Positions 3,058 to 63,753 of a stretch of 64,000 nucleotides of DNA are shown in pieces. Under the pieces are notes generated by a model. It was not told where the DNA came from. It searched no databases and was given only the letters and a program-made list of their open reading frames with translations. Both the position numbers and the translations under genes were made by a program. The DNA is from a virus. Positions within the stretch are counted from its first letter, which is position 1. The number at the start of each line of letters is the position of its first letter. The stretch is taken from IMG/VR virus record IMGVR_UViG_3300036766_000359, positions 124,001 to 188,000 of that record; one strand, given 5' to 3'.

Positions 3058-4062
3058 ATGCGAAAATTGGTAAGTGTTCAGCGAGTGTTGGCATTGCATC
3101 CGATTCCAACTGCCGATGCAATCGAGCTTTGCCAGATCAATGGCTGGCAGTGTGTAGTCAAGAAGGGCGATTTTCAAATCGGTGATATCGGGGTGTACTT
3201 CGAGATCGACGCGGTACCACCGGATCGTCCGATATTTGATTTTCTGTGGAAGGGACAAGCGAAACGTCCAGGGTCACTTTGCATCCGAACGGTTCGTCTC
3301 CGGGGGGCATTGAGCCAAGGGTTGCTAATGCCCTTGGAGCTGTTCCCCGAGGCTGAATGCACCGTAGAGGGTGCAGATCTCACAGAAATCCTTGGGGTTT
3401 ATAAATATGAGCCACCGCCTCCTGATGGTATGGGCGACTACCGGGGACCTTTTCCAACCCTGATAGTCAAGACTGACGAGGTGCGTATTCAGAGTTTCCC
3501 ACAGCTTATCGATGAACTACGGGGTAAGCCTTACGTAAGCACCCTAAAGTGTGATGGTACCTCTGCGACCTTCTGCATGTGGGAAGGAAGCTTCCATGCC
3601 TGCGGGCGAAACCACTCAATCGCGGATGCCGATAACATTTTCTGGCGAGCCGCACGCCGATATATGCTCCCCGAAATCATGGCACGGTATCCGGATCTGG
3701 CTCTACAAGGTGAAGTGGTAGGCCCCGGAATTCAAAAGAACCATATGGGACTCAAGGGAGTGGAATTTCGTTCCTTTAACCTCTATGACATGCGCAAAGG
3801 CAGGAATCTCGACCATGATGAATGCTTTGCGTTTTACGAGAAGCATGAGATTCCAGCTGCTCCCGTCGTTGAAGAAGGGCAATGCTTCCAACACACGGTC
3901 GAGAGCTTACTCCAACTTGCTGAGGGCCCATACCCCGATACCAAGAACGAACGTGAAGGTATCGTGATCCGGCCTCGCATAGGACAGCATAGTCAGACAC
4001 TCGGGGGACGTTTGTCGTTCAAAGCCATTAGCAACCGTTTTTTGCTCAAGAGTGGGGACTGA
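3058..4062 (+). CDS. RNA ligase, DRB0094/Rnl5 type
   Basis: 334 residues. An N-terminal OB-like domain (about 1-110) precedes the nucleotidyltransferase core. Motif I is LKCDGTS with the adenylation Lys at 164. LQGEVVGPG fits motif IIIa, EREGIVIRP motif IV and SFKAIS motif V. The domain order, OB-like first, matches the DRB0094 family of ATP-dependent RNA ligases, which seal 3'-OH/5'-PO4 RNA ends. Phages often use such enzymes to repair host-cleaved tRNA. That role is inferred; the family call rests on visible motifs. First plus-strand gene after the minus-strand cluster. Confidence 0.85.
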   Translation: MRKLVSVQRVLALHPIPTADAIELCQINGWQCVVKKGDFQIGDIGVYFEIDAVPPDRPIFDFLWKGQAKRPGSLCIRTVRLRGALSQGLLMPLELFPEAECTVEGADLTEILGVYKYEPPPPDGMGDYRGPFPTLIVKTDEVRIQSFPQLIDELRGKPYVSTLKCDGTSATFCMWEGSFHACGRNHSIADADNIFWRAARRYMLPEIMARYPDLALQGEVVGPGIQKNHMGLKGVEFRSFNLYDMRKGRNLDHDECFAFYEKHEIPAAPVVEEGQCFQHTVESLLQLAEGPYPDTKNEREGIVIRPRIGQHSQTLGGRLSFKAISNRFLLKSGD

Positions 4063-19508: not shown

Positions 19509-20615
19509 ATGCTGACCGACGTTTTCGAGATCGAACAGGCAACCTACAAGCGGGTACTCTCGTTCAACATCCGCTCTGGCGGGAACGTGATCATCCTGGG
19601 CCAAGCTGGCACAGGCAAGACGGAGATCGCGCAAGCGGTCTGTGGAGAAGAAGGGTTTGAGTACATCTACTTGAACCTGTCCGTTCTGGAGGCACCTGAC
19701 CTCGTCGGTTTGCCGATCATCGCGGCAAACAACACTGTTGACTACGCCAGCCCGAAGTTCCTTCCTCGGATGGACATCACCCCGAAGCCGATCGTCCTGA
19801 TTGTCGATGAGATCGACAAAGCCAAGCCCGAGCTTCAGAACCCCTTGCTGGAGCTTTTCCAGTTCCATTCCATCAACGGGACCAAGCTCAACATCAAGGC
19901 GATCATCGCCACGGGCAATCTGCCTGACGAGGGGGCGTTCAGCCAGCCCATCTCACACGCCCTCACCAACCGGTGCAAGGTGTACCGCCTGACGCACTCC
20001 TTCGAGGCGTGGCGCGAGTGGGCTCAAAACGACTCGCTCAACGCGCTGGTCATTGGCTTCCTGAGCAAGAACCAGGAGTACCTCAGCCGAGCGGCGGTCG
20101 AGGGAGATCCCACGGCGTACTGTCGCTGCAGCCCGCGCTCTTGGGCAATGGCCGCCAACGACCTGGACAAGACGTCCAGCCAAGACACGGTGGAGTTTCA
20201 GACACTCCTCGTCAGCGGTCGCGTCGGGATGGGCGCTGCGGTGAAATTCCGGGTGTGGCTCGACCACTATCGCCACGTGGAGCCCATCATCGAGAAGCTC
20301 GTCGAGAAGGGCGAGAAGCCTTCCATCAACGACATGTCGATCGATCGACAGCTCGTTTGCGCAATTGCCGCTGTGGCAGCCGTCGCCAACGAATGCAAGA
20401 GGGAGCTGAAAGGCGAGGAGCGCGTGAAGCAGGGCGAGCGCGTGACGAAGATTGCCAAGAACGTCTTCAGTTGGGTGAAGCTCCTCCCATCTGAGTTCCA
20501 GATTGGCGCGGTCAAGTCGGCACTCAACATGAAGATGATCCAGGAATTCAAGCTGACCAACGTTCAGGAAGTGATGGACACCTATCTCACGGTACGTAAG
20601 GCCATGAAGGACTGA
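19509..20615 (+). CDS. MoxR/RavA-type AAA+ ATPase
   Basis: 368 residues. Walker A GQAGTGKTE at 31-39, Walker B IVLIVDEID with D100-E101, a sensor-1 IIATGN, and an Arg after TN that fits the finger. MoxR-type ATPases remodel partner complexes and usually pair with a von Willebrand A protein. The VWA gene at 23055 is the likely partner. A domain of about 150 residues C-terminal to the ATPase carries no motif I recognise. Confidence 0.8.
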   Translation: MLTDVFEIEQATYKRVLSFNIRSGGNVIILGQAGTGKTEIAQAVCGEEGFEYIYLNLSVLEAPDLVGLPIIAANNTVDYASPKFLPRMDITPKPIVLIVDEIDKAKPELQNPLLELFQFHSINGTKLNIKAIIATGNLPDEGAFSQPISHALTNRCKVYRLTHSFEAWREWAQNDSLNALVIGFLSKNQEYLSRAAVEGDPTAYCRCSPRSWAMAANDLDKTSSQDTVEFQTLLVSGRVGMGAAVKFRVWLDHYRHVEPIIEKLVEKGEKPSINDMSIDRQLVCAIAAVAAVANECKRELKGEERVKQGERVTKIAKNVFSWVKLLPSEFQIGAVKSALNMKMIQEFKLTNVQEVMDTYLTVRKAMKD

Positions 20616-20635
20616 TTCTCCTTCGCTGAGAATCA

Positions 20636-20671
20636 GAGGGGACTGTCGGTTGAAATACTGGCAGTCCCCTC
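20636..20671 (+). terminator. hairpin terminator after the MoxR gene
   Basis: GAGGGGACTG pairs with CAGTCCCCTC. A smaller GATTCTC/GAGAATC hairpin lies just before it. Confidence 0.65.
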
Positions 20672-20688
20672 TCGATTATGTGGGTGAT

Positions 20689-20859
20689 ATGATAAAAATC
20701 CGTAACATAGCTTCGTGCCAAGACTGTAAGAAACTAACCGCTGCAGCAATGTCTGCATATGACAAAGCACCGGGTATAGTGCAAAAATCAATCTGTGATT
20801 ATCATCAAGCTGCCATTCAAAGCGGGGTGAGTGAGCAGATTAAACTGATGAAGCGATAA
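20689..20859 (+). CDS. small C-x2-C...C-x2-H protein, paralogue of 18947
   Basis: 56 residues: SCQDCKKLTAAAMSAY then SICDYHQAAIQSG. Same zinc-ligand spacing as 18947, which supports both as real genes. Confidence 0.6.
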   Translation: MIKIRNIASCQDCKKLTAAAMSAYDKAPGIVQKSICDYHQAAIQSGVSEQIKLMKR

Positions 20860-20913
20860 CTTAAGCTGCCGGAGTGGAGATCGGCGGGTTATCGGCGTAC
20901 TGTGAGTGGACAA

Positions 20914-21420
20914 ATGAGCGTACGCACCCGAAAGATGAAGAAGGAGAAGCTGCGCAAGGTTGCGCACGGTAAGGACTACGAAAGTCTCTTGTCCGTGTTT
21001 TATCGATACAATATGTTTGACTCATGGGAACCGAATCAGTTCATGGAGTTCGTCCGTCTGTATCGCTATTTCCCGTGTGATAGCACAGGCAGCGCGTTCG
21101 TTAGTTCAGTTCAACGCGACCGCGAACAGTTTTGTCTTGATGATGTTTCTGAACGTCTCAAGGCACTGGTTCGTAGCAAGCGCTTTTTAGAAAAGTGTGG
21201 CTATTATTTGCCATTTGGCACCACCAACATCATGTACATCGTTGATTCGTGGAACGTGATGGATCTCATGAAGTTGGTGACTTTCTGTCAAAAAAGCCGT
21301 GATGCTAATTCCGTGTTAGCATTGATCCGTTCGGTACAAATTTTTGGACACAAAATTCGCTTCCAGGAAGTAAAAGCGGCCATGGGTATGATCAAGATTC
21401 AAAAGATCATGGAATCATGA
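20914..21420 (+). CDS. hypothetical protein with IQKIMES tail
   Basis: 168 residues, basic start (MSVRTRKMKKEKLRKV), then a helical body rich in Phe/Tyr. It ends MIKIQKIMES. A GTG at 20902 is an alternative start. Its stop overlaps the next ATG. Function unknown. Confidence 0.65.
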   Translation: MSVRTRKMKKEKLRKVAHGKDYESLLSVFYRYNMFDSWEPNQFMEFVRLYRYFPCDSTGSAFVSSVQRDREQFCLDDVSERLKALVRSKRFLEKCGYYLPFGTTNIMYIVDSWNVMDLMKLVTFCQKSRDANSVLALIRSVQIFGHKIRFQEVKAAMGMIKIQKIMES

Positions 21421-21605
21421 AACCACATAATTGGGTCAAAGCTCGTACTCGTAGTCTCAAGGTTGACGGTTTCGCCGGTATCTATTACCGGCGATGTACT
21501 GAGTGTGGAATCGAAGTTTCATACGATGATGATGGTAAATGGCCGTTTGAACCTTATAATGATGACTGCGACGAGCAGATCCTTCGGGTAATACATGAGT
21601 CATAA
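21417..21605 (+). CDS. zinc-ribbon protein with LRVIHES tail
   Basis: 62 residues: MKPHNWVKART, then YYRRCTECGIEVSY, then DDCDEQILRVIHES. The tag's Met is replaced by His. ATGA overlap with the upstream gene. Confidence 0.65.
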   Translation: MKPHNWVKARTRSLKVDGFAGIYYRRCTECGIEVSYDDDGKWPFEPYNDDCDEQILRVIHES

Positions 21606-21939
21606 ATCCGCAGATATGGTGACTTATTCACCAAAGGGTCACAAGGATATTTATACACACTGCACTCATGCAGATGCTTTGAAGTATAACAGAAGATACG
21701 TTGAATCAATGAGTACTGTGACTATTCTTGGTTATTGGGATGATTTCATCTGCCCATCATACGATATTTTCAGAGAAGACGGAGTTTCACACTTGAAAAG
21801 TGATGAAGGAAACTGGGATGTTTTCTTTAGTAAAATGTACATTTGTCGTATGTCTTCCAGGGATAAAGCCATTCAGTCGTTAGCAGCTCTTCGGCATGAC
21901 CCGAGTCTGGTCGTCATTTTTCAGACTCATGAGTCGTAG
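21595..21939 (+). CDS. hypothetical protein with FQTHES tail
   Basis: 114 residues, overlapping the previous gene by 11 nt. Alpha/beta with aromatic clusters (GYWDDFICPSYDIF). It ends VVIFQTHES, a tag variant like its neighbour. Confidence 0.6.
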   Translation: MSHKSADMVTYSPKGHKDIYTHCTHADALKYNRRYVESMSTVTILGYWDDFICPSYDIFREDGVSHLKSDEGNWDVFFSKMYICRMSSRDKAIQSLAALRHDPSLVVIFQTHES

Positions 21940-21990
21940 CTTTCATGTTGTCACGCGTACGGGAGGCGGATAGATGAAGGAGGTCATGAA

Positions 21991-22164
21991 GTGAAGCTCT
22001 ATGGCTCAAAGCGCAAGTCTTGTCAGACGTGCAAATATGGGTGCTGCGGATCCAAGGAAGCGAAGCTCCACCGGTTCGCGGGTGCGGGTGCCGTGCGGAA
22101 GGCAGCCCGTCACCGGGCGCGGCGGAAGGCACGGGAGGAAGCGACGCAGGAGGCGACAGAGTGA
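21991..22164 (+). CDS. small Cys/Arg-rich protein
   Basis: 57 residues from a GTG preceded by AGGAGG. CQTCKYGCCGSKEAK then a very basic helix (VRKAARHRARRKAREE). Short proteins of this type (C.TC..GCCGS...HR) occur in other phages with no assigned role. Its stop overlaps the next GTG. Confidence 0.6.
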   Translation: MKLYGSKRKSCQTCKYGCCGSKEAKLHRFAGAGAVRKAARHRARRKAREEATQEATE

Positions 22165-43032: not shown

Positions 43033-43551
43033 ATGTCTAAACTAAGTTTTGCACCAAGTTATACTAATCGTGAAGATTTATCCCGAGATCCTCAAACTTC
43101 TCCAGAAATCCTAACACAGTTATCCGATGACATAAATCCGAGTATTCGCTATTTTGTGGCCGTGAATCCCAACACACCCCCCGAAACTTTGACCAAGTTA
43201 TCCATTGATTCGGATTACATTGTTCGTCGGCGTGTGGCCTCGAACCCTAATACTTCTCCCGAAACCTTAAACCAATTTGCCGATGACACGAATGCGAATG
43301 TTCGTCGGAATGTGGCCTCGAATCCCAACACTCCTTCTGAAATTTTAACCAAGTTATCCAATGATGCGGATTATATTGTTCGTCGGAATGTGGCCTCGAA
43401 TCCCAACACACCCCCCGAAATTTTAACCAAGTTATCCAATGACTCGGATTATATTGTTCGTCGGCGTGTGGCCTCGAATCCCAACACTCCTTCTGAAACC
43501 CTAATTCAACTTGACGCACTTGAAGCCGCATTCATGGTGACTAATAGTTGA
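43033..43551 (+). CDS. LRV-repeat protein with MVTNS tail
   Basis: 172 residues, about six units of 24 residues ([20 protein letters not shown] and similar), several nearly identical in DNA. It ends [17 protein letters not shown] at 43021 is an alternative start. Confidence 0.65.
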   Translation: MSKLSFAPSYTNREDLSRDPQTSPEILTQLSDDINPSIRYFVAVNPNTPPETLTKLSIDSDYIVRRRVASNPNTSPETLNQFADDTNANVRRNVASNPNTPSEILTKLSNDADYIVRRNVASNPNTPPEILTKLSNDSDYIVRRRVASNPNTPSETLIQLDALEAAFMVTNS

Positions 43552-44089: not shown

Positions 44090-44467
44090 ATGTCGCGAAA
44101 AGGTAAAGCCAAGTTAGCTAATGACACGGATCTGACTATTCGTCGGCGTATGGCCGACAGTCCAAGTACATCTTCCAAAATCCTAACCCAGTTAGCTAGT
44201 GACACGGATGAATTGGTTCGTCAGCTTGTGGCCTCGAATTCCAACACACCTTCTGAAACTTTGACCCGGTTGTCTAATGACACAGATAGAGCTGTTCGTC
44301 GGTGTGTAGCCTCGAATCCTAACACTTCTCCTGAAATCTTAACTCAACTTGCTTATGATACAAATAGAAATGTTCGTCGGCATGTATCTCAGAACCCTAA
44401 CACACCCCCCGAAACCTTAGTTAAACTTGATGCACTTGAAGCCGCGTTCATGGTAACGAATAGTTAA
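44090..44467 (+). CDS. LRV-repeat protein with MVTNS tail
   Basis: 125 residues, four to five units ([46 protein letters not shown]). It ends [13 protein letters not shown]. Strong DNA similarity to 43033. Confidence 0.65.
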
Positions 44468-45441: not shown

Positions 45442-46011
45442 ATGAGTGTCGATCCGAAAACCCCTGAAGATTACTTTGACGCGGGTGTTCGTGCTCGCTA
45501 TGACATTGCCCATAATCCTCACACATCCCCATCAATTTTGGCTCAATTGTATACTGACGTTAATCCTAATATTCGTTTAGCGGTGTCAGTGAACCCGAGT
45601 ACGCCAATTGATATTTTAGTTAAAATGTCAGTAGGCGAACCCACCATGATTCGTCAGGGTGCAATTGGCGAACCCACCATGATTCGTCAGGGTGTAGCCG
45701 CAAATCCGAGTGCACCTATCAGTCTCTTGACCGAGTTATCAATCGACAAGGACAATATCGTTCGTCAAAGTGTAGCATGGAACCCAAATACTCCTGTCGA
45801 TGTCTTAATCCGATTATCGGACGATGTCGATCAATACGTTCGTCGCGGTGTGGCCAAGAATCCAAATACTCCTGTCGATGTCTTAATCCGGTTATCTGGT
45901 GACGTCAGTCGAGGGGTTCGTCAGGGTTTGGAAAAGAACCCCAATACACCTCCCCAAATCTTGCTTCAGTTAGAAGCGCTCGAAATCGCCTATCAGGTAA
46001 CAGAAAGTTAA
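45442..46011 (+). CDS. LRV-repeat protein with QVTES tail
   Basis: 189 residues, about six units (NPHTSPSILAQLYTD, NPSTPIDILVKMS, NPNTPVDVLIRLSDD). A 33-nt segment encoding GEPTMIRQG is duplicated inside it. It ends LEALEIAYQVTES. A GTG at 45400 could extend it. Confidence 0.65.
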   Translation: MSVDPKTPEDYFDAGVRARYDIAHNPHTSPSILAQLYTDVNPNIRLAVSVNPSTPIDILVKMSVGEPTMIRQGAIGEPTMIRQGVAANPSAPISLLTELSIDKDNIVRQSVAWNPNTPVDVLIRLSDDVDQYVRRGVAKNPNTPVDVLIRLSGDVSRGVRQGLEKNPNTPPQILLQLEALEIAYQVTES

Positions 46012-60100: not shown

Positions 60101-60106
60101 GGACGC

Positions 60107-60251
60107 TTGTAAGAGATTGCTGTCGCTGAAATTGGGTCGCCTCCACGGCCTAAAGGCGAGGTGTGAACAACACGCTCGCCAAGTAGATGTGAAAACATCT
60201 ACGTTAACCTTCGGGTTAGATTTCATCCTGGGCAACAGCAATCTCTTACAG
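60107..60251 (+). ncRNA. candidate tracrRNA for the Cas12f-like effector
   Basis: A perfect 16-bp stem (60108-60123 with 60235-60250) encloses a stem GGCGAG-GTGT/ACAC-CTCGCC (60155-60180), an 8-bp GAAA-capped hairpin GTAGATGT/ACATCTAC (60183-60202) and a UUCG-capped hairpin TAACC/GGTTA (60205-60218). Then comes ATTTCATCCTG (60220-60230), an exact complement of CAGGATGAAAT inside the CRISPR repeat. A UUCG hairpin immediately before the anti-repeat is also the layout of Cas12f tracrRNA. An inner copy of CTGAAATTGG (60126-60135) mimics the repeat and could pair with the anti-repeat before crRNA binds. Confidence 0.75.
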
Positions 60252-60273
60252 GTGTTCAGTGTGAAGAGGTAGT

Positions 60274-61842
60274 ATGACTGAACGAAATGCTTGTCGCAAT
60301 TGTGGTATTATAAAGGCAGACGGGCGGTGTCCATCATGCATCGTCACGGCTGTGCTTATGGAGATCGTGAAACCCACATCAGAAAACTGGGACGATTTCG
60401 GAGATCAACTTCGCGGTCTTCGAAGTCTCACTCATCGAATGCTTAATGCTGCGATGATTGGCCTTGTGTCTGATCTTCACAATCGGGAAAGTAAGAAGGA
60501 TTGTGCCGGTTTCACCGATTTAAGTTTTTGGCGAGAAGTTGATCTCCATAATCGTGACACAAGTCAGGATATTGACTCAGGTCAGAGCACTTATAAGCAT
60601 ATTAATGCTGAACTCAGATCCTATTCTGCTTGGTGCGCTGGTCAACGTCAACAGAAACAAGAGGCTTTGGATTCTAGTCAACTGGCATTATTGAAAGCTC
60701 GGCCAGGTAAAAATAAGGAAAAGTTGACTGCGGACGTCACTCGTTTTGACAACGAGGTGAAAAGACTTGCTTCCCGTGAAAACTTGGCGTCTACCATGTC
60801 GATGAGCATGGTTGCCTGCCTCGGCAAAACAGCTGACGATAAATTCAGACAGTGGCTAAAAGTTCGGATCGAAGAACGTCTTCCCATGTATAAGAAGAAG
60901 TCTCCGATCATGCTTAATAATATGGACGTCAGGATTCAACTTATTGATAAGTCATCCGTTCAAATGAGTTTGAAGCTCCGTAGTAAGGGTACAACTCATG
61001 TTATTGCATTACCCGTGAGTGGGTCAGCATGGCAAGCGATGCGCTTGGTTGCGTCAGGTGCGGCCAAACATGGAGCCGGTAAAATCACTTACGACGAAGC
61101 TAAGAAGAAATGGTTTCTACGTTTGACGATCATCCGTCCACGTCCACAACGTCCACCCATGAACTCCGATGTGGTTTTAGCGGTAAATCGTGGTCGCAAC
61201 AATTTCTTATATGCAATTTCTAATGACGGGCGTACTTCCCGGGTCATATGGCCTGGTAATGATATTCTTCAGTTCAAAAAGAGCATCCGGGCTCGAACAC
61301 TGGACCTGAAACGGATGCGTCACCATCGTGGCAGTGGTGCTCATGGACACGGACGTGATCGATTTTTCGCGTCTGAAACCAGACTCAAAGACTACGAAAT
61401 AAATTTCGTTAGAACTCTTTGCCAAAGAGCTGCGGCTGCACTGGATCAGCAAGCTCGAGAAATTGGTGCCGGGACTATAGTCATCGAAGACTTTAACACA
61501 ATTGATTCAGAAGACCTTCGTTATGTTATGAGTTGGCCATGGTATCAACTCAAACAGGCAATCGCCTGGATGTGTGAGAAAACTGGTCGTACACTCGTTG
61601 AAGTGCCTAGTGAGTATATCAGTTCTGAGTGCCCGAATTGCGGGAATCGGGATGTTAGCCAAGTTAATCATCTTGGAATATTTCATTGTAAAGGGCACTG
61701 CACTGGATATAAGAATGGGTTCAGTCGCGAATCAGATTTCGTGGCTTGTTATACAATGTTGCGACGATCCAATGTTGATATGTCAGGTTGGGATCGTTAC
61801 TTCAAAATTACGGATAAAATCTCAGCAGAAGCAGCAGAATAA
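60274..61842 (+). CDS. Cas12f/TnpB-like CRISPR effector with altered RuvC-I motif
   Basis: 522 residues, in the size range of Cas12f (about 400-700). An N-terminal zinc finger (C7, C10, C19, C22) and a helical recognition part lead to the RuvC domain. RuvC-I reads VLAVNRGRNNFLYAIS, where the usual catalytic Asp is Asn305 (codon AAT at 61186). RuvC-II is TIVIEDF with Glu405. The target-nucleic-acid zinc motif has C453, C456, C472, C476. RuvC-III is ESDFVACYTML with Asp488. The D-to-N change predicts lost or much reduced DNA cleavage, leaving guided DNA binding. GAAGAGG precedes the ATG, directly downstream of the candidate tracrRNA. Alternatives: a TnpB-like nuclease-dead repressor or a new type V subtype. 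Confidence 0.85.
   Translation: MTERNACRNCGIIKADGRCPSCIVTAVLMEIVKPTSENWDDFGDQLRGLRSLTHRMLNAAMIGLVSDLHNRESKKDCAGFTDLSFWREVDLHNRDTSQDIDSGQSTYKHINAELRSYSAWCAGQRQQKQEALDSSQLALLKARPGKNKEKLTADVTRFDNEVKRLASRENLASTMSMSMVACLGKTADDKFRQWLKVRIEERLPMYKKKSPIMLNNMDVRIQLIDKSSVQMSLKLRSKGTTHVIALPVSGSAWQAMRLVASGAAKHGAGKITYDEAKKKWFLRLTIIRPRPQRPPMNSDVVLAVNRGRNNFLYAISNDGRTSRVIWPGNDILQFKKSIRARTLDLKRMRHHRGSGAHGHGRDRFFASETRLKDYEINFVRTLCQRAAAALDQQAREIGAGTIVIEDFNTIDSEDLRYVMSWPWYQLKQAIAWMCEKTGRTLVEVPSEYISSECPNCGNRDVSQVNHLGIFHCKGHCTGYKNGFSRESDFVACYTMLRRSNVDMSGWDRYFKITDKISAEAAE
61186..61188 (+). other. RuvC-I catalytic codon, AAT (Asn) in place of GAT/GAC (Asp)
   Basis: Codon 305 in AVNRGRNN. A single G-to-A change from an Asp codon would produce it, so a sequencing error must be excluded. 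Confidence 0.7.
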
Positions 61843-61849
61843 AGGTAAT

Positions 61850-62443
61850 ATGAAAACAAACACTGAAATTAGTCAAAAAGATACTCAACTACTCAACAAG
61901 ATCGTCATTGATCTTCAGCGAGTCAAAAACCTTAATGACAAGGCGGATATCGAGTTTTTTCTGAAACTACGTGATATATCGATTAAGCATAAGGAGTTAA
62001 TTGAACGCGGGCATGGATCTGTGTTCAGTTTTTTCAGCTCAAAGGGCCTGAGTCCCGCCCCTCAGTTCAAGAGCTTCTTGAGGGGTCTCTCCTTCATTGA
62101 TGATCCGACAGCCAAGAAAGTAGGTCTATCGGTAGTCATGGCATTGGCTAAGACTCAGCATAAAAAACAAGTTCATGAAGTCGTGCGCTTGGCACTCGAG
62201 CATTTCAGTGCTCACTCAGTTCAACCGAACGATCGCCAAGCAAAAGCGATCATGATGACGGCTGGAGCCCGAGAAATCATTGCGCGGGGACCAACGATCG
62301 CGTCTCAACTTCAGCGACGCATCAGTCAGCTTGAAGCTGAAAATGAACAACTTCGCGCGGATCTCAGATCTGAGCGTCGTCTTAAGGTTCAGTTTGAGCG
62401 TCGTCTTGCTCAGTATGAAAAGTCCGGCAAACGCGCTGCATGA
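61850..62443 (+). CDS. CRISPR-associated accessory protein with C-terminal coiled coil
   Basis: 197 residues between effector and array, 7 nt after the effector stop. The helical N-terminal two thirds (QLLNKIVIDLQRVKNLNDKA, FFSSKGLSPAPQF, RQAKAIMMTAGAREII) precede a coiled coil (QLEAENEQLRADLRSER, about 156-190). It does not resemble Cas1, Cas2, Cas4 or a sigma factor. The position suggests a partner of the effector, for instance an oligomerisation or repression factor. Function unknown; the operon link is the only evidence. Confidence 0.75.
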   Translation: MKTNTEISQKDTQLLNKIVIDLQRVKNLNDKADIEFFLKLRDISIKHKELIERGHGSVFSFFSSKGLSPAPQFKSFLRGLSFIDDPTAKKVGLSVVMALAKTQHKKQVHEVVRLALEHFSAHSVQPNDRQAKAIMMTAGAREIIARGPTIASQLQRRISQLEAENEQLRADLRSERRLKVQFERRLAQYEKSGKRAA

Positions 62444-62633
62444 TGCGAGAGACTCTACGGCACTTCATATGCCGTAATCGCTCGCACGTTTGAAGTTCTT
62501 TGACATTTTAATAATCAGGCTATGAAACCTCATAAACCGGTGGAGACGGTTTATGAGGTTCAGAATTTCAGTTGAACTGAAACCGTGAAACAGCGTGATT
62601 GTAAGTTTGAAATCGAAGTGTACTGATGGCACT
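62444..62633 (+). promoter_or_regulatory. CRISPR leader
   Basis: Contains TGCGAG...CTCGCA around a TACGGCA/TGCCGTA hairpin (end of the accessory gene), a possible promoter TTGACA (62500-62505) / TATGAA (62521-62526, 15-bp spacer), a 14-bp hairpin AACCTCATAAACCG/CGGTTTATGAGGTT (62526-62560), and a TTTCAGTT-G-AACTGAAA palindrome. A repeat-like TTGAAATCGAAGTG (62608-62621) may be a dead first repeat. Confidence 0.55.
62526..62560 (+). terminator. 14-bp leader hairpin
   Basis: AACCTCATAAACCG pairs with CGGTTTATGAGGTT around a 7-nt loop. No U-tract, so more likely a leader structure or a processing barrier than a terminator. Confidence 0.55.
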
Positions 62634-63753
62634 GTCGAAATCGAGATCAGAACAGGATGAAATTGGAGCAAAACGATTGGCCACATTTAATTGGACTAAC
62701 GACCAAGTCGAAATCGAGATCAGAACAGGATGAAATTGGAGCAGGGCATGGTTTTTCATACCTATACTTTTTAAGTCGAAATCGAGATCAGAACAGGATG
62801 AAATTGGAGCGACGGACGACAGGGGTAGTGAGGCCCAACGGGATATCAGTCGAAATCGAGATCAGAACAGGATGAAATTGGAGCCGCTGCCAACCATCTA
62901 TCAAATCTCACGACTTCTAGGAGCGTCGAAATCGAGATCAGAACAGGATGAAATTGGAGCAGCCACTTGTTCCGAGCAACCAAATAATGGGTCCCGACGT
63001 CGAAATCGAGATCAGAACAGGATGAAATTGGAGCGCTTTGCGGAGCAGACCGTCGCGGTGGGCGCGGTGATGTCGAAATCGAGATCAGAACAGGATGAAA
63101 TTGGAGCCTCGTCGGGGTGGTCAACCACTCCACGCGCGATCGCATCGGGATCAGAACAGGATGAAATTGGAGCAGGCAGTCGCTCATGAGTTCGTCGATT
63201 GTGCGCCCAGTCGAAATCGAGATCTCACCACAGCGATAGCCAGGTCGAAATCGAGATCAGAACAGGATGAAATTGGAGCTCGTAGACAGCCTGGAGCCCG
63301 TGTCGAAATCGAGATCAGAACAGGATGAAATTGGAGCAGGCGTCTGCCAAGGAACGTCGGAATCGAGATTAAAACAGGATGAAATTGGAGCAACCGCGTG
63401 TCCAATGGCTGTGACCGCAGGTCGGAGGGTCGAAATCGAGATCATAACAGGATGAAATTGGAGCCTGCGCGAGCAAACGCCAGTCCTTGGTGACGACAAA
63501 GGTTGAAGTCAAGATAATAACATAATGAAATTGGAGCGCCTTGTTGATGGTTAGGTCGATTGGATCGGCCTGCGTCGAAATCGAGATCAGAACAGGATGA
63601 AATTGGAGCATACAGTGGCGCGTCATCGCCCCAATGCTGCTCGTCGTCGAAATCAAGATCAGAACAGGATGAAATTGGAGCTAGTGCTGAGAGAATCGTT
63701 GGCGGATCAGATGAGCTGTTGAAATCGAGATCAGAACAGGATGAAATTGGAGC
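62634..63753 (+). CRISPR. type V CRISPR array, 16 full-length repeats plus one truncated
   Basis: 36-nt repeats that begin GTCGAAATCGAGATC and end GATGAAATTGGAGC. Starts: 62634, 62707, 62775, 62849, 62925, 62999, 63072, 63138 (5' half degenerate), 63210 (only 15 nt), 63244, 63302, 63356, 63429, 63502, 63574, 63646, 63718. Most spacers are 30-40 nt; two are 22 and 18 nt (63280, 63338), and 19 nt follow the truncated repeat. Variants cluster at the right end (63356, 63429, 63502, 63646, 63718), which fits a leader on the left. The repeat's CAGGATGAAAT pairs with the RNA at 60220. Confidence 0.95.

What the first reader, a model, noticed from the sequence alone, without database searches (positions are those of the whole stretch)
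60107..63753. Compact phage-borne type V CRISPR system: tracrRNA-like RNA, mini Cas12, accessory gene, array
All parts lie in 3.7 kb on one strand, in the order candidate tracrRNA, 522-aa Cas12f/TnpB-like effector, 197-aa unknown protein, 36-nt repeat array. No adaptation genes are present. Seen directly: motifs, repeats and anti-repeat. Established: Cas12f uses a tracrRNA and a short crRNA repeat end, and some huge phages carry Cas12 systems. Inferred: this is a new or divergent V-F-like subtype used against competing elements or to regulate host genes.
Basis: partly seen in the sequence, partly recalled or inferred. Interest (0 to 1): 0.92.

Follow-up and report, generated by a model that had tools for sequence, protein, structure and literature searches.

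The report
Phage CRISPR with a disarmed Cas12f
A large bacterial virus carries a small CRISPR system whose cutting enzyme has lost a key cutting residue but whose guide RNAs and partner protein are intact, and the same set occurs in three other, unrelated phage sequences, so it probably binds and silences DNA instead of cutting it.

Summary
In detail: 60105-63753 of this 193-kb virus record holds a tracrRNA, a 522-aa Cas12f-type effector, a 197-aa gene and a 17-repeat CRISPR array, all on the + strand. I found three further members on unrelated phage records (Rctr197k and two IMG/VR contigs). RuvC-I reads N, H, H or R in the four; the other two active-site residues never change. The four form one clade (support 100/99) beside AsCas12f1-like Cas12f and apart from TnpB. 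All four have an array, a tracrRNA with a shared core and two anti-repeats that match each phage's own repeat, and a homologous, otherwise unknown helical leucine-zipper protein next to effector or array. Cas1, Cas2 and Y1 transposase are absent from all four records. Best explanation: a V-F-derived, naturally nuclease-dead, phage-borne CRISPR interference system that silences DNA by guided binding, with the zipper protein as dedicated partner. No spacer target was found, so the victims are unknown. It is a new variant of a known kind.

The parts
60105..60255 (+). tracrRNA-like RNA: 19-bp closing stem, inner hairpins, shared core and two anti-repeats
   Evidence: fold z = -10.5; shared core and anti-repeats in all four phages
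60149..60161 (+). tracr core motif CCTAAAGGCGAGG
   Evidence: only match to CC[TC]AAA.GCGAGG in the 193-kb genome, on either strand; single matches also in Rctr197k (197 kb) and in 19 kb of G002, each beside the effector; not matched in G001, which keeps GCGAGG
60141..60145 (+). anti-repeat 2 (CTCCA), pairs with TGGAG at the 3' end of the repeat
   Evidence: same aligned place and at least 5 bp in all four phages; matched sum ranks 1 of 24 permutations, narrowly
60220..60230 (+). anti-repeat 1 (ATTTCATCCTG), pairs with CAGGATGAAAT of the repeat
   Evidence: 11 bp here; 8-12 bp in all four with their own repeats, at most 7 with other phages' repeats
60274..61842 (+). Cas12f-type effector, 522 aa, RuvC triad N305-E405-D488 (predicted nuclease-dead)
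   Evidence: PDB AsCas12f1 1.1e-30, profile 2.5e-48; PADLOC Cas12u3/Cas12f 4.6e-41; residues
61186..61188 (+). codon 305 AAT (Asn) at the RuvC-I catalytic Asp position
   Evidence: alignments
61850..62443 (+). accessory gene, 197 aa, predicted all-helical with C-terminal leucine zipper
   Evidence: homologues beside all four dead effectors; leave-one-out profile without the coiled coil finds each
62444..62633 (+). leader with a perfect 14-bp inverted repeat (62526-62560)
   Evidence: function not tested
62634..63753 (+). CRISPR array, 17 repeat units, 16 spacers

Best explanation
This is a phage-borne CRISPR interference system derived from subtype V-F. The array makes crRNAs whose repeat pairs at two places with the tracrRNA encoded just upstream of the effector; the Cas12f-type effector binds this dual guide and the matching DNA. 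Having lost the RuvC-I aspartate it does not cut: it stays bound and blocks transcription or replication of the target. The leucine-zipper protein, encoded by the next gene, is a dedicated partner that probably binds the effector or the DNA and strengthens or extends the block. Shown: the parts, their conservation, the clade and the lost residue. Inferred: RNA expression, DNA binding, lack of cutting, the partner's role, and the kind of target.
For: Four effectors on unrelated phage records have N, H, R, H at RuvC-I but keep E and D; of the other sequences aligned all but one have D at RuvC-I. They form one clade, 100/99, next to AsCas12f1-like Cas12f. tracrRNA core and matched anti-repeats in all four. 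Accessory homologues in all four: leave-one-out E 2e-12, 1e-18, 6e-4 and 4e-12 without the coiled coil, and none in the held stretches around the Cas12f relatives checked. Intact open frames at 21-38% identity argue for selection. Cas12m proteins with H-D-D or N-D-D sites bind and silence without cutting (PMC11013384, PMC10442227).
Against: No biochemical or expression data. E and D of the active site are kept, which a pure binder would not obviously need (Cas12m also keeps part of its site and holds Mg2+ there, PMC10442227). No spacer target found. The leader-distal part of the window's array is decaying and the Rctr197k array has only four repeats.
Confidence: 0.68

Rival explanations
1. Same machine, other purpose: a guided regulator that switches host genes during infection, like the phage-encoded TldR repressors, rather than a weapon against rival elements.
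For: Phage-encoded nuclease-dead TnpB repressors of host genes are established (PMC13418256); inactivation fits regulation.
Against: TldR works from its own guide RNA without a CRISPR array; here there are 16 different spacers of mean GC 0.57 against 0.46 for the phage genome and unrelated spacers in each phage, which looks like a record of varied foreign DNA.
Confidence: 0.17
2. The effector still cuts or nicks: N, H or R at RuvC-I is tolerated, another residue supplies the metal ligand, or the accessory protein supplies the nuclease.
For: E405 and D488 are invariant; reading frames are intact.
Against: Three different residues replace Asp, one of them Arg, which is not expected to bind Mg2+; the accessory matches no nuclease family in Pfam or PHROGs and is predicted helical with low confidence; N-D-D and H-D-D Cas12m do not cut dsDNA (PMC11013384).
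Confidence: 0.1
3. A dying CRISPR system: the nuclease was lost and what is left is decay.
For: Degenerate leader-distal repeats, truncated units R8 and R9.
Against: All effector and accessory frames are open; two of three active-site residues, zinc-ribbon cysteines and guide pairing are kept in four deeply diverged members; the first seven repeats are identical.
Confidence: 0.04
4. An IS200/IS605 TnpB with a chance repeat array.
For: NCBIfam's TnpB model matches just under its cut-off (96 of 100 bits); the Rctr197k protein is annotated transposase-like.
Against: Tree, PDB profile and Foldseek all put it with Cas12f; no Y1 transposase in any of the four records; repeat-matched tracrRNA.
Confidence: 0.01

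Closest known systems
Cas12f1 / V-F1, formerly V-U3 (AsCas12f1)
   Same: Fold and sequence (PDB profile E 2.5e-48), C-terminal zinc ribbon, CRISPR array, tracrRNA with split anti-repeat
   Different: RuvC-I Asp lost; conserved leucine-zipper partner gene; N-terminal CxxC...CxxC extension in the window member; found here only on phage records
Cas12m (V-M, formerly V-U1)
   Same: Non-canonical RuvC site with His or Asn first; expected binding without cutting
   Different: Much more distant in sequence (best Cas12m entry E 0.009 against 2.5e-48 for Cas12f); Cas12m2 uses a crRNA alone (PMC10442227), this has a tracrRNA
TldR (nuclease-dead TnpB repressors, some in phages; PMC13418256)
   Same: RuvC inactivated, phage-borne, partner genes
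   Different: No CRISPR array in TldR; this groups with Cas12f, not with TnpB
dCas12f RNA-guided transcription system (PDB 9n9c, 9n9m; its sigma-factor partner is from memory, not checked here)
   Same: Nuclease-dead Cas12f homologue; Foldseek hit 2.2e-9
   Different: The window protein is closer to AsCas12f1 than to this dCas12f; its partner is a zipper protein with no sigma-factor match; array and tracrRNA present
Cas12k (V-K transposon effector)
   Same: Dead RuvC with partner proteins and tracrRNA (from general knowledge)
   Different: No Tn7-like genes were noted at the loci (not searched for specifically); fold similarity much weaker

Membership tests
Subtype V-F (Cas12f) | Effector sequence groups with Cas12f and not with TnpB | tested here: met
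   Sister to AsCas12f1-like proteins, 86/87; dead clade itself 100/99; PADLOC Cas12f 7.9e-40
Subtype V-F (Cas12f) | CRISPR array beside the effector | tested here: met
   Arrays in window, Rctr197k, L042, L072
Subtype V-F (Cas12f) | tracrRNA with repeat:anti-repeat pairing | tested here: met
   Sequence complementarity only, no expression data; matched pairs 8-12 bp, mismatched at most 7 bp
Subtype V-F (Cas12f) | Intact RuvC D-E-D site for DNA cleavage | tested here: not met
   N-E-D, H-E-D, R-E-D, H-E-D; cleavage itself not testable with these tools
Subtype V-F (Cas12f) | Works as an asymmetric dimer | not testable with these tools
   Needs structure or biochemistry
Subtype V-M (Cas12m) | Sequence membership in Cas12m | tested here: not met
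   Cas12m entry only at E 0.009, Cas12f at 2.5e-48
Subtype V-M (Cas12m) | Single crRNA, no tracrRNA | tested here: not met
   tracrRNA-like RNA found
TldR / TnpB | TnpB clade, own guide RNA, no CRISPR array | tested here: not met
   Array present; tree position; no Y1 transposase

The most novel reading that the evidence does not exclude
The zipper protein is an obligate co-effector: it multimerises on the guided, non-cutting Cas12f complex and spreads a block along target DNA, or recruits or excludes RNA polymerase. This would be a two-protein CRISPR silencing machine used by phages, distinct from every described type V subtype.
Probability: 0.3. Interest if true: 0.9.

Novelty: new variant of a known kind. 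Interest (0 to 1): 0.78.

Why it matters
It would show that phages hold a CRISPR lineage that has given up cutting, parallel to Cas12m, Cas12k and TldR but from the Cas12f branch, and with its own partner protein. It makes testable why a phage would rather silence than cut, and offers a compact natural guided DNA binder with a natural accessory factor. My searches of the open PMC library turned up no description of this clade or of the accessory gene; most subscription papers and preprints were not searchable.

Tried and rejected
Close-relative scans of viral contigs with the effector, the accessory and the repeat found nothing, as did an alignment scan and a scan with the Rctr197k protein. 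One DNA pattern was sent with two N too many, so out of frame; corrected it gave 12 stretches, none encoding a relative by tblastn. A looser pattern then found L042 and L043. The same pattern over 84,980 bacterial and archaeal genomes gave 23 stretches, none related, so outside phages the clade is rare or absent at that sensitivity. Spacers: no match in phage or plasmid records; in the own genome only stretches of up to 14 nt besides themselves. The effector structure model has low confidence (mean pLDDT 53), so only the ranking of Foldseek hits was used; the accessory model is confident only in the coiled coil. PHROG, Pfam and PDB hits of the accessory lie mostly in its coiled coil or are weak and were not used. 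Host not identified: no phage relative in a megablast of the first 25 kb of the window.

Full report
What is there. The window is positions 124001-188000 of a 192,972-base IMG/VR virus record. At its right end, on the + strand, lie in order a structured RNA (60105-60255), a 522-aa gene (60274-61842), a 197-aa gene starting 8 bases after the effector's stop (61850-62443), a leader and a CRISPR array (62634-63753). The array has 17 repeat units; the seven next to the leader are identical and several distal ones are decayed, with spacers of 18-41 nt. No Cas1, Cas2 or Y1 transposase is found in the record.

The effector. Sequence searches place it with Cas12f, nearest AsCas12f1 (PDB phmmer 1.1e-30; PADLOC Cas12u3/Cas12f 4.6e-41; profile of four members against the PDB 2.5e-48). 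A low-confidence model still ranks AsCas12f first in Foldseek (1.6e-16). The RuvC-I motif reads VVLAVNRG: the catalytic Asp is Asn305 (codon AAT). Glu405 and Asp488 are kept.

Relatives. A protein search of phage records found Virus Rctr197k (29% identity; annotated as transposase-like, with a CRISPR next to it), where RuvC-I reads VMAVHRG. A DNA pattern made from residues shared by these two found two IMG/VR contigs: L043/L072 (85.7 kb, 38% identity, VLVVHRG) and L042 (44 kb, 21-23%, IMFVRRT). Window phage and Rctr197k share only a few distant single-gene matches; the two contigs were not compared genome-wide. The host of none is known to me. In a tree with 29 other Cas12f and TnpB proteins the four are one clade (100/99) next to AsCas12f1-like proteins (86/87). 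Of all aligned sequences outside the clade only one lacks the RuvC-I Asp (L075, N-A-E); within the clade it is N, H, R, H while E and D are constant.

The guide RNA. The window RNA folds with z = -10.5. Its core CCTAAAGGCGAGG is the only match to CC[TC]AAA.GCGAGG in 193 kb; Rctr197k has one match in 197 kb and G002 one in 19 kb, each beside the effector; in G001 only GCGAGG is kept. Before the core lies a short anti-repeat to the 3' end of the repeat, after it a longer one to the middle of the repeat. Each phage's RNA pairs best with its own repeat: anti-repeat 1 is 11, 10, 12 and 8 bp when matched and at most 7 bp when mismatched; matched pairing ranks first of 24 permutations for both anti-repeats, though only narrowly for the short second one. 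In Rctr197k the RNA lies after the effector instead of before it. Split pairing of this sort is, from my knowledge of solved Cas12f guides, typical of V-F.

The accessory gene. Homologues stand beside effector or array in all four: between effector and array in the window and L042, after a short array in L072, before the effector in Rctr197k. A profile built from three members without the coiled coil finds the fourth each time (2e-12, 1e-18, 6e-4, 4e-12), and no such protein lies in the held stretches around the Cas12f relatives checked. It matches no named family; the model is all-helical and only the C-terminal leucine zipper is confident.

How it most likely works. Cas12m proteins with H-D-D or N-D-D sites bind target DNA and silence it without cutting (PMC11013384, PMC10442227), and phages use nuclease-dead TnpB (TldR) as guided repressors (PMC13418256). 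By analogy the window's effector should be a guided DNA binder. The accessory's constant company and zipper suggest a dimeric partner on the effector or the DNA; this is inference. The spacers are richer in G+C (0.57) than the phage (0.46), have no match in its genome beyond 14 nt, and match nothing in the phage and plasmid collections, so foreign targets are more likely than self-regulation, but no target is known.

Known or new. Type V effectors with weak or missing RuvC motifs on phages have been listed in bulk (PMC12607003), and dead Cas12 lineages are known (Cas12m, Cas12k, TldR, and a dCas12f in the PDB). I found no description of this clade, its fixed RuvC-I loss or its partner gene in the open library; that is not proof of absence. 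It works like Cas12m but is not one; it descends from V-F but fails the nuclease feature of V-F. I file it as a new variant of a known kind.

Noticed in passing
L039:10743-14219 (KX853510, 110743-114219): Rctr197k carries a second type V system: a 622-aa effector matching PADLOC Cas12u1/V-U1 (5.8e-105) with D at RuvC-I, beside an array of about 20 repeats. One phage thus seems to hold a D-E-D and a dead type V effector.
   Followed up: partly
L075:1435-2772: A chromosomal AsCas12f1-like protein in a genome drawn from the phylum of the Pseudalkalibacillus locus has triad N-A-E, so it is also predicted dead; repeat-like units may follow it.
   Followed up: partly
43155-43499, 44277-44429, 45759-45951: Three places hold 78-base repeats; at 43155 they read in frame as 26-residue units (about RRNVASNPNTPPEILTKLSNDSDYIV).
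   Followed up: no
L042:1319-1372 and 3988-4041: An 81%-identical 54-bp direct repeat brackets the whole L042 system, possibly a mark of insertion or a shared promoter.
   Followed up: no
record positions 19572-22118 (L002/L003) and 190834-192423 (L009): Two collagen-like GPTGPTG proteins, perhaps tail fibres, outside the window.
   Followed up: no
L011:3196-4774 (PV686781): Alicyclobacillus phage MMB025 carries a D-E-D Cas12f annotated as transposase, beside a short CRISPR array.
   Followed up: partly
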